64,000 nt of DNA, taken from Elusimicrobiota bacterium (lineage in GTDB: Bacteria; Elusimicrobiota; Elusimicrobia; Elusimicrobiales; UBA9959). The DNA lies in the NCBI GenBank assembly GCA_026388155.1, contig JAPLKI010000013.1:62001-126000 (forward strand). Direction: 5' to 3'. Shown here piece after piece: positions 9,559 through 15,052 of the stretch (its first letter is position 1; every line of letters starts with the position of its first letter). The notes under the pieces were generated by a model. That model ran no database searches and had not been told where the DNA came from. It worked only from the letters and a program-made list of their open reading frames with translations. Both the position numbers and the translations under genes were made by a program.

Positions 9559-10767
9559 CTAATGTACCAGAGTGGGGCGTTTGTGCTTAAGCACCTTTTT
9601 GGCGCAATCTTCGAAAATATTAAGGGCGCGGTCAAGGTGAGCGCGCGTGTGGGTGGCCGTGACGGCCACGCGGATAAGCGCGCGCTTTGGCGGTACGGCC
9701 GGGGTTATCACCGGATTGGTGAAGAGACCCTTTTCGTATAAAGCTCTCCAAAGCGAGAAGGTCTTTATATTGTCGCCTATGATTATGGGAATGATCGGTG
9801 TTTTTGTCTCGCCGGTGTTAAAGCCCATGGCCTTAAAGCGCTCAAGCAGATACTTGGAATTGTCCCAAAGGTGCTGCCTGCGCTCCGGCTCGGTTTCTAT
9901 TATGTCTATGGCCTTGATAATTGAAGCCGTGGATGACGGCGGCAGGGCCGCGGAGAACATCATGGAGCGGGAAAAGTGCTGGATATAGTGCAGAATGTCC
10001 TTGTCCCCCACCACAAAACCGCCAATTGAAGCGAAGGATTTTGAGCAGGTCCCTACCACCAGGTCCACTTCGCCGTGCTCAAGGCCGAAATATTCGCAGG
10101 TGCCCCTGCCTGTTTTACCTAGAACGCCGGTGGCGTGGGCGTCGTCCACCATAAAGCGGGCCCCGTATTTTTTGCAGACCTTGGCTATTTCGGGTATCGG
10201 GGCGATATCGCCTTCCATGGAAAAAACGCCGTCCACTATAACAAGTCTTCCGCGCTTGGGGCCTACGTCCTTAAGCACCCGTTCCAGGTCCTGTACATTA
10301 TTGTGCCTGAAGCGGCGTATCTCTCCGTTTGAAAGTTTGCAGCCGTCAAAAATGCTGGCGTGGTCAAGCTTGTCCACCACAACCACGTCTCCCTTCCCCA
10401 CCAAAGCCGAAACTACGCCTAAATTCATCTGATAGCCGGTGGAAAAAATGAGGGCCGCTTCCCGGCCCTTGAAAGCGGCAAGGCGCCTTTCAAGTTCGGT
10501 GTGCAGGACCGTATTGCCGTTCAGGAACCGCGAGCCTGCCATTCCGGTGCCGAATTTTTTCACGGCGTCTATGGCGGCCTGCTTCATTCTGGGATCGTTC
10601 GCGAGCCCAAGGTAGTTATTTGAGCCGAACATTATGAATTTCTTTCCGTCTATTACGACTTCGGGGGCCTGTTCGGAGGCCATTTCTTTGAAATAGGGGT
10701 AGATACCGGCTTCTATCAGCTCGTGGGCATGGGTGAACTCGCGGCATTTTTTAAATAAGTCGTTCAT
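9559..10767 (-). CDS. Alpha-oxoamine synthase, serine palmitoyltransferase-like
   Basis: 402-residue fold-type I PLP enzyme that condenses an amino acid with an acyl-CoA. GSNNYLGL, the GTGMAGSRFLNG loop, DDAHATGVLG and the PLP lysine in TCSKSFASIGG (~K242) all fit the BioF/Kbl/SPT family. The N-terminal AGIYPYFKEM, SEQAPEVVIDGKK and DKLDHASIFDGC resemble the bacterial serine-palmitoyltransferase subgroup more than BioF. No other biotin gene is nearby, and the neighbour is rfaE2, so a lipid or envelope role is preferred. Substrate is inference; alternatives are 8-amino-7-oxononanoate synthase or 2-amino-3-ketobutyrate CoA ligase. SD GAGGA precedes ATG 10767. Confidence 0.82.
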   Translation of the reverse strand: MNDLFKKCREFTHAHELIEAGIYPYFKEMASEQAPEVVIDGKKFIMFGSNNYLGLANDPRMKQAAIDAVKKFGTGMAGSRFLNGNTVLHTELERRLAAFKGREAALIFSTGYQMNLGVVSALVGKGDVVVVDKLDHASIFDGCKLSNGEIRRFRHNNVQDLERVLKDVGPKRGRLVIVDGVFSMEGDIAPIPEIAKVCKKYGARFMVDDAHATGVLGKTGRGTCEYFGLEHGEVDLVVGTCSKSFASIGGFVVGDKDILHYIQHFSRSMMFSAALPPSSTASIIKAIDIIETEPERRQHLWDNSKYLLERFKAMGFNTGETKTPIIPIIIGDNIKTFSLWRALYEKGLFTNPVITPAVPPKRALIRVAVTATHTRAHLDRALNIFEDCAKKVLKHKRPTLVH

Positions 10768-10809: not shown

Positions 10810-11295
10810 TCAATGCGGTTTGGAAAGCCGGCTTTTGGCCAACTTTCGTATCAGGGCTGTGGTGGAGCGGCCTTTTACGAGCGGGATTCTTACCGTTCTT
10901 CCGGCGAATTTGGCGCCGACTATTTCGCAGGCCGTATAGTCGGCGCCTTTAACCAGAATATCCGGTTTAAGAGTTTTGATCAGCTCAAGGGGGGTATCGG
11001 AGCTGAAAATAACCACGGCGTCCACGGCGGAAAGTGCCGCAAGCACCCTTGCGCGGTCTTTTTGGCGATTTACCGGGCGGCCGGCGCCTTTCAGACGCTT
11101 AACGGAAGCATCGGAGTTAAGGCCAAGGAACAAAAAATCGCCAAGGGAGCGGGTTTTTTCAAGCAGGGTTACATGTCCGGCATGCAGTATATCAAAACAG
11201 CCGTTGGTGAAAACGGCCGTTTTGCCTTTTTTGGCGAGAGCGCGGCGCAGCGCCAGGGCCTTTTTAAGCGAAACCAGCTTGGAGCGGGTGTTCAT
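10810..11295 (-). CDS. rfaE2: D-glycero-beta-D-manno-heptose 1-phosphate adenylyltransferase
   Basis: 161-residue stand-alone nucleotidyltransferase equivalent to the C-terminal half of HldE. It has FTNGCFDILHAGHV (the HxGH motif), GLNSDASVKRLKG, GRPVN and DILVKGADY, all characteristic of RfaE domain II. It activates heptose-1-phosphate for lipopolysaccharide core synthesis. The kinase half is not adjacent; a different kinase fused to a related nucleotidyltransferase lies at 39124-40647. Its stop is 42 bp from the next start on the minus strand, so it is likely co-transcribed with the alpha-oxoamine synthase. Confidence 0.85.
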   Translation of the reverse strand: MNTRSKLVSLKKALALRRALAKKGKTAVFTNGCFDILHAGHVTLLEKTRSLGDFLFLGLNSDASVKRLKGAGRPVNRQKDRARVLAALSAVDAVVIFSSDTPLELIKTLKPDILVKGADYTACEIVGAKFAGRTVRIPLVKGRSTTALIRKLAKSRLSKPH

Positions 11296-11316: not shown

Positions 11317-11425
11317 ATAGCGAATAGTAAGATAGCGAATAGCGCATAGTGAAGAACAGTGAAGAAGACAACAGTAAAATTCTTTCGGTTACTACTATTT
11401 TCCATCTTACTATTCGCTATTTGCT
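11317..11425. repeat. Intergenic inverted repeat, GCGAATAG type
   Basis: GCGAATAG words on the left (TAGCGAATAG, GATAGCGAATAGCG) face CTATTCGCTATTTGC on the right. The spacer contains TTTCGGTTACTACTATT, shared in part with the copy at 58031-58136. The right arm overlaps the end of accC: the codons for its final Ser-Lys and its TAG stop are repeat sequence. Confidence 0.8.
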
Positions 11426-12775
11426 AACCAATTCCGCAGGCGCAAGCAGTCTTTCCATAAAGCCGGTATCTGTGCGGCCCGCGCGGAAATCTTCGTTGGC
11501 CACTATCAGCCTGTGCGCGTCCAGAGTGGTTTTTATGCCGCTGACGCGGAATTCATCCAGCGCCCTCGCGGAGCGGGCTACGGCGGCGTTCCTGTCCCGG
11601 CCCCAGACTATAAGTTTCGCAAGCATGCTGTCGTAATAAACAGGCAGGCTGTAGCCCTGATAAACATGAGTGTCCACCCTTACCCCCGGGCCGCCCGGCA
11701 GCAGCCATTCCTCAACGCGGCCGACCGAGGGGGCGAAATTGCGGGTGAAGTCCTCGGCGTTCACGCGGTGCTCTATGGCATGGCCGGTGAAGGGTACGCT
11801 GCGTCCGTGGATAAAAGAAATTGTCTCGCCTGCCGCCGCGAGCAGCTGCTCCCGCACCAGATCGGCGCCGGTAATAAATTCCGTCACCGGGTGCTCCACC
11901 TGCAGGCGGGTGTTTACTTCCATGAAATAAAAATTGCCTTCTTTATCCAGCAGGAACTCCACCGTGCCTACGCCCACATAATCGGCGGCCTTGGCCAGGG
12001 TCAGCGCGGCTTCTTCCAGCTTTTTCCTTAAAGCCTGGGTTACCGCCGGAGAAGGGGATTCCTCCACCAGCTTCTGGTGGCGGCGCTGTATGCTGCAGTC
12101 GCGCTCGGGGAAAGCCGCCGCGGTCCCGTGCGAATCGCGCACGAACTGCACTTCTATATGGCGCGGGTTTTCTATGTATTTTTCAAGGTAAACTTCGTCA
12201 TTGCCGAATGCCGCTTTAGCTTCCGACTGGGCCATCTGCAATTCGTGGGTCAGTTGCGACTTTTCGCGCACTATCCTTATGCCTTTTCCTCCGCCGCCGG
12301 CGGCCGCCTTTATCATAACAGGGTAGCCTATTTTTTCAGCTTCGGGCCCGCAGTTTTTTGAAACGCAGTCTTTTGTGCCCGGCGTTATCGGGATGCCGGC
12401 TTTAACGGCCATTTTCCGGGCGGCCGCTTTGTGGCCCAGGAGGCGTATGGATTTAGGCGACGGGCCGATAAAAACCAGGCCGTTTTCAGCGCAGGCTTCG
12501 GAAAAATCCGCGTTTTCTGCCAGAAAACCGTAGCCCGGGTGGACGGCTTCGGCCCCGGTCAATTTGGCCGCTGCAATGACCGCCGGGATATTAAGATAGC
12601 TCTCGCGGGCCATGGCGGGGCCTATACAGACCGCCGAGTCCGCCGCGCGCACATGCAGGCAGGAACGGTCGGCCTCGGAATAAACGGCCGCTGACTGCAC
12701 TCCCATTTCTTTAAGAGTGCGTATAACGCGCACGGCTATTTCGCCGCGGTTGGCAATAAGGACTTTAGTAAACAT
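11417..12775 (-). CDS. accC: Acetyl-CoA carboxylase, biotin carboxylase subunit
   Basis: 452 residues, normal family length. It makes carboxybiotin on the carrier protein for malonyl-CoA synthesis. The N-terminal fold has KVLIANRGEIAVRVIRT, the ATP-grasp has the AAAGGGGKGIR loop, HIEVQ and MEVNTRLQVEHPVTE, and the C-terminal domain has FTGHAIEHRVNAED. SD GGAGG lies 6 bases before ATG 12775. accB is separated from it by the zinc-ribbon membrane protein gene. The last codons (AGC AAA TAG) lie in the adjacent GCGAATAG repeat, so the C-terminus seems trimmed or extended by that element. Confidence 0.95.
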   Translation of the reverse strand: MFTKVLIANRGEIAVRVIRTLKEMGVQSAAVYSEADRSCLHVRAADSAVCIGPAMARESYLNIPAVIAAAKLTGAEAVHPGYGFLAENADFSEACAENGLVFIGPSPKSIRLLGHKAAARKMAVKAGIPITPGTKDCVSKNCGPEAEKIGYPVMIKAAAGGGGKGIRIVREKSQLTHELQMAQSEAKAAFGNDEVYLEKYIENPRHIEVQFVRDSHGTAAAFPERDCSIQRRHQKLVEESPSPAVTQALRKKLEEAALTLAKAADYVGVGTVEFLLDKEGNFYFMEVNTRLQVEHPVTEFITGADLVREQLLAAAGETISFIHGRSVPFTGHAIEHRVNAEDFTRNFAPSVGRVEEWLLPGGPGVRVDTHVYQGYSLPVYYDSMLAKLIVWGRDRNAAVARSARALDEFRVSGIKTTLDAHRLIVANEDFRAGRTDTGFMERLLAPAELVSK

Positions 12776-12784
12776 TAAACCTCC

Positions 12785-12868
12785 AATAAATCAGTGATCG
12801 GTTAACCGCCGTATCCGGTTACCGGTATTCAGCTGCTTTACCGGCCACTTTACCGATTACCGCTGCAC
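12785..12868. repeat. Intergenic inverted repeat, CGGTTACCGG type
   Basis: TCAGTGATCGGTTAACCG and TCCGGTTACCGGT face TACCGGCCACTTTACCGATTACCG. It lies between accC and the zinc-ribbon gene, whose CAC TAG end abuts or overlaps it. The word type is shared with 1040-1090. Confidence 0.65.
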
Positions 12869-14553
12869 TAGTGGCCGCCCGGGGCGGGGGTAATATCTTT
12901 TTCAATTTTTGCCCGCGCGGTCCAAAGATTAACGTTTAAAACCATTATATCCCTGATCCCCGCGGTTTCGGCCCCCGGTTTAAGAACTTCTTCCCTTAAA
13001 GTTACCCGATACTCCGGGCCGGATATGTGCGCGGCGAGCCAGGTATCCTTCGGCAGAAATCTCGCTTTTCTCGGCCCAAGTTTTGCGGCCAGATCCGACA
13101 GCTCGCGCTTGCGCGCTTCAAGAAGCGGCGGCTGGTCGGGAGACCGGCGGGAGCGCTGCGCAAAAGCTATAGCTTCCGGCTTCGCGTCGCCGTTTAAAAA
13201 GCGCAGGCGCGCCGCGGTCTCTTTTTTGTTTAACTCTCCCTCGCAAACTGCTCCCGCTTTCATGGTGTCGTCCAGGGCACTTTCGTATTTCTTCAGTCTT
13301 ACAAAGGCGTCGGCGCGGCTTATGTAGAGGGGGCATTGCTCTTTCGGCGAAAGCCGGGTGTCGTCGAGCATGGAGTTGTATTCCTTTATGGCCGGTTCAA
13401 ATTTCTCAAGGAAGCGCAGGCTTTCGGCGTAATATAGCCTGTACCCGAAAATCACCTCCGGCGAAAAACCAACCGGGTAAATTTTGGCCGCGGTTAAAGT
13501 CTCTCCGCAGGATTCCTCCGATTTGTCATAAATTTTCATAAAAAACTCGGAAACGCATAAATAACCCGAGGTTCTGGGGTCAATTGGGTCAGTCAGGTAA
13601 AGTTTTTGCGCCAAAAACAGCGCTTGGGGGAAATCATGCCTGTCAAGGGCGGCGTCTATGGGCTCAAAAAGCGTCCAGATATACGGCCTGGCCCACTTTC
13701 CATTTTCCCGCACAAAGGAAATGTAATCAGGCTGCCAGGGGTTATCGCTTACCTGCAGCTGGTATTTTATCATGGCGGCGGTTTTGCCCATCGTGAAAAT
13801 TTCTATGTCTTTAAACTTCCAGTTCGGGAATTTAGAATAATAATCCTTGCTGCGCTTTACATAGTCTTCGGCCGAACAGACCGATTTGGAATTTGTGGAC
13901 AGCAAGTCGTAGGCCTCGCGGTAGCTGCCGCTTGAGAGTTTTGCAAGGTAGCCGGCGGCCGCGCGCTTAAGCATGAAACCCGGGAGGCTGGGTTCCAGCA
14001 GCAAATAGGCCGCCACAAGCGCGGCTGCGGCGACGGTGAGCCCGAACAAGACGGGTTGATATTTTTTAAAAGATGAAAATGTTCCGGCGGCTGTACCGGC
14101 TGTGCGGGTGGATTTGGCCGCGGGAGGAATGGGGGCGGCCGCGGGCGGGGCGGGCTTGGAGCCGGCCGTTTTTGGGGGTTCGGGTTTTCGAAGAGATCTG
14201 TAGGATATTTCCCTTTCGTTTACAGTGTCCTGTATGGGCTGCATTTCCAGATGCGGGCGGGCGGGGGGGGGCGGTTTATTTTGCGCTCTGCGAGTTGAAA
14301 TAGTCCCCTGCTCCGTGAAAAAAAGTCTTCCCGCTTCGGGTGCAACGCTGCCTTTGGGGTCGTGCGCCGCCGCCGGTTTCAGGGTAAGAAGACCGCCGCA
14401 CTGGTCGCAGTAATTCTTTTCCACCGCGTTGGAAAAACCGCAGGTCCCACAAAGCTTTTCAAGCTTCGCGTTGCAGCGTATGCAGATATCGGTAAGTATA
14501 TTGGGCTCGTACCCGCATTTAGGGCAGCGTATTAGAGAGGGTTTTTGCGGCAT
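12868..14553 (-). CDS. Zinc-ribbon, single-pass membrane protein with TPR-like region
   Basis: 561 residues. The N-terminus carries two four-cysteine zinc ribbons (C10-C13-C24-C27 and C35-C38-C49-C52). A low-complexity Pro/Ala linker follows, then one transmembrane segment (~165-188, LFGLTVAAAALVAAYLLL). After that come a ~100-residue NTF2/DUF4878-like segment (YREAYDLLSTNSKS, MIKYQLQV) and helical repeats that look like TPRs (~290-450: ALFLAQKLYL, YYAESLRFLEKFEPAIKEY, ADAFVRLKKYESALDD). The ribbons are probably cytoplasmic and the rest periplasmic. It sits between accB and accC, but nothing in it suggests a carboxylase role. No SD is visible at ATG 14553; its leader is repeat sequence. Function unknown. 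Confidence 0.75.
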   Translation of the reverse strand: MPQKPSLIRCPKCGYEPNILTDICIRCNAKLEKLCGTCGFSNAVEKNYCDQCGGLLTLKPAAAHDPKGSVAPEAGRLFFTEQGTISTRRAQNKPPPPARPHLEMQPIQDTVNEREISYRSLRKPEPPKTAGSKPAPPAAAPIPPAAKSTRTAGTAAGTFSSFKKYQPVLFGLTVAAAALVAAYLLLEPSLPGFMLKRAAAGYLAKLSSGSYREAYDLLSTNSKSVCSAEDYVKRSKDYYSKFPNWKFKDIEIFTMGKTAAMIKYQLQVSDNPWQPDYISFVRENGKWARPYIWTLFEPIDAALDRHDFPQALFLAQKLYLTDPIDPRTSGYLCVSEFFMKIYDKSEESCGETLTAAKIYPVGFSPEVIFGYRLYYAESLRFLEKFEPAIKEYNSMLDDTRLSPKEQCPLYISRADAFVRLKKYESALDDTMKAGAVCEGELNKKETAARLRFLNGDAKPEAIAFAQRSRRSPDQPPLLEARKRELSDLAAKLGPRKARFLPKDTWLAAHISGPEYRVTLREEVLKPGAETAGIRDIMVLNVNLWTARAKIEKDITPAPGGH

Positions 14554-14565
14554 ATATTTACGAAG

Positions 14566-14677
14566 AGATTACAGCGATGGGATTTAAGGATTACAGCGAT
14601 AAGATAGGGGATTATAAAAAGAATGTTCCGATGAAAAATCACCGTAATCCCTGCCCAATCGCTGTAATCTCCCCTTA
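14566..14677. repeat. Intergenic inverted repeat, GATTACAGCGAT type
   Basis: GAGATTACAGCGAT and GGATTACAGCGATAAG on the left face CACCGTAATCC and CAATCGCTGTAATCTCC on the right, around a spacer with GAATGTTCC. The right end supplies the last codon and TAA stop of accB (CGA TAA). Confidence 0.75.
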
Positions 14678-15052
14678 TCGCGGTTCTATGAAAAACAGGG
14701 GCTGACCGTATTCCACGGGTTTGCCTTCTTCCACGGAAACTATCTTTAAAAATCCGTCCGAGGGTGCGGACACCGGTTTGTGATCCTTACCCACTTCTAC
14801 TACACCCAGTTCCTGCCCCTTTTTAACGGAGGAACCTTCTTTAAGCGTGTTGGTTTTGCCGGGGCCGGCGAAGCGGAAAATACCTATGGAAGGCGAGGAT
14901 ACCGGCACGAGCGTGGAGGACAGGGAGGCGTGATGCTCCGGCTGGTTATTTAGTTTTAGACTTATTTTTTCCTCCCCGTCTTTCCAGGTAATTTCCTCTA
15001 GGTCGGTGGTTTCCATCCATTTGGTAAGTTTACTGAGTGTTTTCATATCCAT
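14675..15052 (-). CDS. accB: Biotin carboxyl carrier protein of acetyl-CoA carboxylase, with atypical biotin motif
   Basis: 125 residues: short N-terminal region (LTKWMETTDLEEITWKDGEEKISLKL, typical of AccB), linker, and an 80-residue biotinyl/lipoyl-like hammerhead starting SPSIGIFRFAGPG. It carries CO2 between biotin carboxylase and carboxyltransferase. The usual EAMKM biotin site reads E-V-G-K-D: the lysine is kept but the flanking Ala-Met and Met are lost. It may still be biotinylated by a tolerant ligase, be weakly modified, or have lost the carrier role. SD GGAGG precedes ATG 15052. It lies between cdd and the zinc-ribbon gene, with accC one gene further on. Confidence 0.85.
   Translation of the reverse strand: MDMKTLSKLTKWMETTDLEEITWKDGEEKISLKLNNQPEHHASLSSTLVPVSSPSIGIFRFAGPGKTNTLKEGSSVKKGQELGVVEVGKDHKPVSAPSDGFLKIVSVEEGKPVEYGQPLFFIEPR

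What the first reader, a model, noticed from the sequence alone, without database searches (positions are those of the whole stretch)
14675..15052. AccB with a non-canonical biotin site (E-V-G-K-D)
The hammerhead domain is otherwise normal, but the nearly invariant A-M-K-M around the biotinyl lysine reads V-G-K-D. The methionines are widely conserved for biotin-ligase recognition and carboxyl transfer. Either this lineage's biotin ligase tolerates the site, or the protein is no longer the working carrier, in which case another AccB must exist. The gene is also split from accC by an unrelated membrane-protein gene.
Basis: partly seen in the sequence, partly recalled or inferred. Interest (0 to 1): 0.6.

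Follow-up and report, generated by a model that had tools for sequence, protein, structure and literature searches.

The report
Biotin-less twin of a carrier protein
Next to the only biotin carboxylase gene of this uncultured Elusimicrobiota bacterium sits a conserved look-alike of the biotin carrier protein whose family has repeatedly lost the spot where biotin is attached, while a separate normal carrier exists elsewhere in the genome, which makes it a probable bacterial counterpart of the plant BADC helper subunits of acetyl-CoA carboxylase.

Summary
In detail: the gene at 14675-15052(-) encodes an AccB/BCCP-like protein whose E-AMKM site reads E-VGKD. The genome has a second, canonical AccB (EAMKVFNE) on another contig, one accC (next door), one PccB-type carboxyltransferase and a biotin-ligase candidate. 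Across the phylum, 77 surveyed genomes carry both paralogues. The standalone copy ("A") keeps EAMK in 84 of 84. The accC-linked copy ("B", the window gene) does not: in one clade (families f1, f2, f7, f8, f10) the motif is gone and the Lys column holds K, S, R, A, N, G, C, V or P. Elsewhere, where the motif is recognisable, 7 of 38 have Arg or Gln for Lys, at least five losses on the tree. B stays in front of accC and is under strong purifying selection (dN/dS 0.04-0.18). Full motif loss coincides with replacement of AccA/AccD by a PccB-type CT. Best reading: B is a non-biotinylated structural or regulatory subunit of the biotin carboxylase complex that works like plant BADC but arose independently. 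Biochemistry is untested; Lys survives in 31 of 35 window-family sequences, so residual biotinylation there is not strictly excluded.

The parts
14675..15052 (-). Paralogue 'B' of AccB/BCCP, 125 aa, biotin site lost (BADC-like candidate)
   Evidence: ORF; Pfam Biotin_lipoyl; tree places it in an accC-linked AccB clade with 99% SH-aLRT; dN/dS about 0.045 against genus-mates
14948..15052 (-). N-terminal helix plus beta-hairpin (residues 1-35), homologous to the N-terminal part of BCCP
   Evidence: hhalign with the canonical paralogue covers it; E. coli BCCP aligned only weakly (5.3 bits); invariant K4, T10, W12, T16, D17, L18, E20; AF2 helix 3-15, strands 18-24 and 29-34 (pLDDT only 50-65)
14681..14902 (-). 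Biotinyl-like hammerhead barrel (residues 51-124)
   Evidence: Pfam; AF2 pLDDT about 74-90; matches 1bdo, 4hr7 and Arabidopsis BCCP1 9a87 at rmsd 1.5-1.8 A
14783..14797 (-). Former biotin-acceptor turn E86-V87-G88-K89-D90 in place of E-A-M-K-M
   Evidence: Lys column variable in relatives
12868..14553 (-). 561-aa zinc-ribbon / putative membrane protein between B and accC; ORFs of similar length at the same place in many family relatives
11417..12775 (-). accC, the only biotin carboxylase of the genome
   Evidence: TIGR00514 639.6 bits over cut-off 626.5; single PF02785 hit in the genome

Best explanation
The window gene encodes a non-biotinylated paralogue of the biotin carboxyl carrier protein. 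It keeps the N-terminal region and the hammerhead domain of BCCP, is encoded beside the sole biotin carboxylase (AccC), and most likely binds AccC, or the AccC-carrier subcomplex, as a structural or regulatory subunit. The carboxyl group is carried by the canonical AccB encoded elsewhere. In mechanism it would resemble plant BADC proteins, which help BC and biotinylated BCCP to assemble. In the window's clade it may also help the free-standing AccC to work with the PccB-type carboxyltransferase found in place of AccA/AccD. Shown here: two ancient paralogues, site loss in B, linkage to accC, purifying selection, one AccC per genome, the CT difference. Inferred: lack of biotin on the protein, binding to AccC, glue or regulatory role.
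For: Canonical second AccB in the same genome. Single AccC and a single-chain CT with no AccA/AccD. 77 surveyed genomes carry both paralogues; A keeps EAMK 84/84. B lost the motif in f1, f2, f7, f8, f10; outside that clade 7/38 B copies carry Arg or Gln for Lys, at least five events on the tree, while A never does (Fisher p 2e-4, not corrected for kinship). A and B are separate clades on trees built without the motif columns. B lies upstream of accC on the same strand wherever both are in view. dN/dS 0.04-0.18. Motif residues are variable while G57, G65, G83, G100 and VEYGQPLFFIE are near-invariant. All 23 motif-loss genomes that gave a CT hit have PccB-type CT without AccA/AccD; all 18 tested genomes with a motif-keeping B have AccA and AccD. 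Plant BADCs share the hallmarks: 25-30% identity to BCCP, no AMKL motif, glue for BC-BCCP (PMC11926652); window B is 34% identical over 89 columns to its own genome's A.
Against: Lys is still present in 31 of 35 window-family B sequences, so selection to keep it, or some modification, cannot be dismissed. No direct evidence of complex formation. The N-terminal half of the model is of low confidence. The clade-wide motif loss may be a single event, so its coincidence with the CT difference is one observation, not a correlation.
Confidence: 0.62

Rival explanations
1. B is still a biotinylated carrier in the window's lineage: the biotin ligase accepts V-G-K-D and the protein carries carboxybiotin with altered kinetics.
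For: Lys at the aligned position in 31/35 sequences of family f1; a ligase-family protein is present.
Against: Arg or Asn at the same position in other members of the same family (G212, L063, G121, G030, G176); Ser/Ala/Gly/Val/Pro in sister families; canonical carrier present; flanking Met lost throughout the clade.
Confidence: 0.1
2. B is an inhibitory decoy: it occupies carrier-binding positions on AccC and lowers acetyl-CoA carboxylase output, as the first papers proposed for plant BADC.
For: Homologous to the carrier over both parts, no acceptor motif, encoded with accC. The inhibitory model for BADC is cited in PMC11926652.
Against: No regulatory element was looked for or found; B is conserved in nearly all genomes, including small ones, which suits a constitutive subunit better. 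The cited NMR work argues against pure displacement in plants.
Confidence: 0.2
3. B is a decaying leftover: the accC-linked AccB is being lost since A took over, and only coupling to accC keeps the frame.
For: Repeated loss of the site; families f5 and f11 seem to lack B.
Against: dN/dS 0.04-0.18, near that of A in the window's own genus; near-invariant residues across sister families; intact full-length frames.
Confidence: 0.06

Closest known systems
Plant BADC proteins (biotin attachment domain-containing subunits of plastid heteromeric ACCase)
   Same: BCCP-like, 25-30% identical to BCCP, no biotinylation motif, coexist with true BCCP (PMC11926652)
   Different: Bacterial, derived inside Elusimicrobiota from an accC-linked AccB; Lys loss is variable and recurrent; the motif-loss clade pairs with a PccB-type CT, not AccA/AccD; interaction untested
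AccB/BCCP of bacterial acetyl-CoA carboxylase (TIGR00531)
   Same: N-terminal part and hammerhead fold, accB-accC gene order
   Different: Below the family cut-off; lacks A-M-K-M; a second canonical AccB is present to do the carrying
Actinobacterial AccE/epsilon subunit (e.g. T. fusca AcCCE)
   Same: Small non-catalytic subunit that assembles and activates an acyl-CoA carboxylase with single-chain CT (PMC7835884)
   Different: Not a BCCP homologue as far as known (not compared here); AccE binds the CT, and the actinobacterial A subunit has fused BC-BCCP

Membership tests
AccB/BCCP (working carrier) | E-A-M-K-M/V acceptor motif with invariant Lys | tested here: not met
   VGKD in window; Lys column variable in orthologues
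AccB/BCCP (working carrier) | Score above the TIGR00531 equivalog cut-off | tested here: not met
   56.2 of 115.2 bits; many true A copies in the phylum also fall short, so this feature alone is weak
AccB/BCCP (working carrier) | Hammerhead biotinyl fold | tested here: met
   AF2 model against 1bdo, rmsd 1.5 A over 76 columns
BADC (works like) | BCCP paralogue with N-terminal region and hammerhead but without the biotin motif, beside a true BCCP | tested here: met
BADC (works like) | Not biotinylated | not testable with these tools
   Implied where Lys is replaced; the window protein keeps K89
BADC (works like) | Physical interaction with BC and BCCP; assembly or regulation of ACCase | not testable with these tools
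   Only gene linkage to accC and conservation
BADC (member by descent) | Common ancestry with plant BADC to the exclusion of bacterial BCCP | not tested
   No BADC sequences were placed in the tree. Motif-keeping and motif-loss B copies form one clade within Elusimicrobiota, which points to independent origin

The most novel reading that the evidence does not exclude
Elusimicrobiota evolved, independently of plants, a biotin-less BCCP paralogue that is an obligate scaffold of biotin carboxylase; in one clade it couples a free-standing AccC and canonical AccB to a PccB-type carboxyltransferase, a new quaternary design of acetyl-CoA carboxylase.
Probability: 0.3. Interest if true: 0.75.

Novelty: new variant of a known kind. 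Interest (0 to 1): 0.6.

Why it matters
Non-biotinylated BCCP-like subunits are described as unique to the plant enzyme (PMC11926652). A phylum-wide bacterial counterpart with repeated loss of the acceptor lysine would show that a carrier protein can be turned into an assembly subunit more than once. It also gives a natural series (AMK, AMR, no motif) and a simpler system for the open dispute over whether BADC is glue or inhibitor. It warns that 'accB' next to accC in these genomes is probably not the functional carrier, which matters for annotation and metabolic models.

Tried and rejected
Sequencing or frame error at the site: rejected, relatives share it. Only AccB in the genome with an exotic site: rejected, a canonical AccB is on C19. 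Lipoyl-domain identity: rejected as unlikely, BCCP profiles score best and the Lys is not conserved. Pseudogene: rejected by dN/dS. A comparison survey of Verrucomicrobiota did not run because the centre must be a genome handle, so distribution outside the phylum is unknown; the genome-contig scan used close-relative peptide patterns and found only Elusimicrobiota B copies plus canonical Verrucomicrobiota AccB. Literature searches for a bacterial BADC or for Elusimicrobia ACC found none; the library lacks most subscription journals.

Full report
Observation. The ORF at 14675-15052(-) encodes 125 aa with a BCCP-like hammerhead and the sequence VVEVGKDHKPV where carriers have (I/V)EAMK(M/V). It scores 56 bits against the BCCP equivalog model, cut-off 115. 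Downstream lie a 561-aa zinc-ribbon/putative membrane protein and accC, the only biotin carboxylase of the genome. The genome belongs to Elusimicrobiota (closest matches).

A second AccB exists. The same genome encodes a canonical AccB with EAMKVFNEIKAE on contig C19, a single-chain carboxyltransferase of PccB type with no separate AccA/AccD, a biotin-ligase-family protein, and a lipoate-ligase-like protein. So the acyl-CoA carboxylase does not need the window protein as carrier.

Phylum-wide comparison. In 248 genomes of the phylum, 242 have a match to the window protein. TIGR00531 surveys of 54 and 35 chosen genomes and extraction of both copies show two paralogues. Copy A has no accC within the flanks fetched; copy B lies directly upstream of accC, or one gene away. 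On trees built after removing the motif columns, A and B are separate (99% SH-aLRT; A 96% and B 99% when rooted on four Verrucomicrobiota AccB). A keeps EAMK in 84 of 84 sequences. B in families f3, f4, f6, f9 and in the other classes keeps a recognisable motif, yet 7 of 38 have Arg or Gln in place of Lys (G033, G118, G002, G004, G043, G054, G032); by the tree these are at least five losses. B in f1 (window), f2, f7, f8, f10 has lost the motif altogether, and the Lys column holds K 40, S 5, R 4, A 3, N 3, G 2, C 1, V 1, P 1 of 60. In f7 a one-residue insertion makes the column assignment uncertain. In f1 itself Lys is kept in 31 of 35, with Arg or Asn in the others.

Constraint. Pairwise dN/dS of B is 0.04-0.18; in the window's genus it is 0.045 against 0.029 for A. 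In the motif-loss clade the former acceptor turn is variable (entropy 2.3-3.5 bits at residues 87-93), whereas glycines of the barrel and the C-terminal VEYGQPLFFIE strand are nearly fixed, and the N-terminal helix carries invariant T10, W12, T16, D17, L18, E20 in the f1 and f2 sequences. The protein is therefore functional, but its function does not need the biotin site.

Fold. AlphaFold2 on 33 orthologues gives mean pLDDT 74; the barrel is mostly 74-90, the N-terminal helix and hairpin 50-65; the five models disagree in confidence (74 against 49-57). Foldseek matches E. coli BCCP 1bdo and 4hr7 (rmsd 1.5 A) and Arabidopsis BCCP1 9a87. Profile comparison joins B and A over nearly the full length.

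Partners. 41 of 44 genomes tested have one AccC hit (exceptions G083, G026, G035), so A and B share one biotin carboxylase. Genomes with complete motif loss have PccB-type CT and no AccA/AccD (23 of 23 with a CT hit); genomes with a motif-keeping B have AccA plus AccD (18 of 18; f6 G169 and f17 G035 have a PccB-type CT as well). G207 has no CT hit, probably an assembly gap. Family f5 has PccB-type CTs and no B found; f11 has AccA/AccD and no B found. Because the motif-loss B copies form one clade, this coincidence may reflect one event.

Interpretation. The economical reading is that the accC-linked copy stopped being the carrier and persists as a subunit of the biotin carboxylase complex. Plant BADC proteins are the closest analogue: BCCP paralogues 25-30% identical to BCCP, without the AMKL motif, which bind BC and BCCP and act as glue, or in another view as inhibitors; they are described as unique to plants (PMC11926652). 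Replacing the acceptor Lys by Ala abolishes biotinylation of the Chloroflexus BCCP domain (PMC11077971), so Arg/Gln/Ser variants of B should not be carriers. A different small non-catalytic subunit assembles actinobacterial acyl-CoA carboxylases with single-chain CT (PMC7835884); B could play that part here, which is speculation. Membership in BADC by descent is not claimed.

Limits. No biochemical data; most of the genomes are metagenome-assembled; plant BADC and most other phyla were not placed in the trees; the residual Lys in the window's own family leaves a small chance of biotinylation.

Noticed in passing
12868-14553: A 561-aa protein with a weak double-zinc-ribbon match and a putative transmembrane segment sits between B and accC; ORFs of similar length occupy this place in many f1 relatives and some f2 (three tested, all with weak DZR matches, one also with TPR). 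Function unknown.
   Followed up: partly
L160, L161, L162, L163 (G059, G157, G174 of f5; G227 of f11): In these families no B copy was found; in the two f5 genomes tested the biotin carboxylase scores much lower than elsewhere (96-110 bits) and only PccB-type CTs are present, which suggests a replaced carboxylase.
   Followed up: no
L153 (G032), L149, L150, L200, L201, L215, L218: accC-linked AccB copies with an otherwise intact motif but Arg or Gln for the biotinyl lysine; those tested for CT (G032, G043) have AccA/AccD.
   Followed up: yes
9559-10767 and 10810-11295: Downstream of accC on the same strand: an aminotransferase class I/II protein resembling alpha-oxoamine synthases, and an ORF that reads like a HldE/RfaE-type nucleotidyltransferase.
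   Followed up: no
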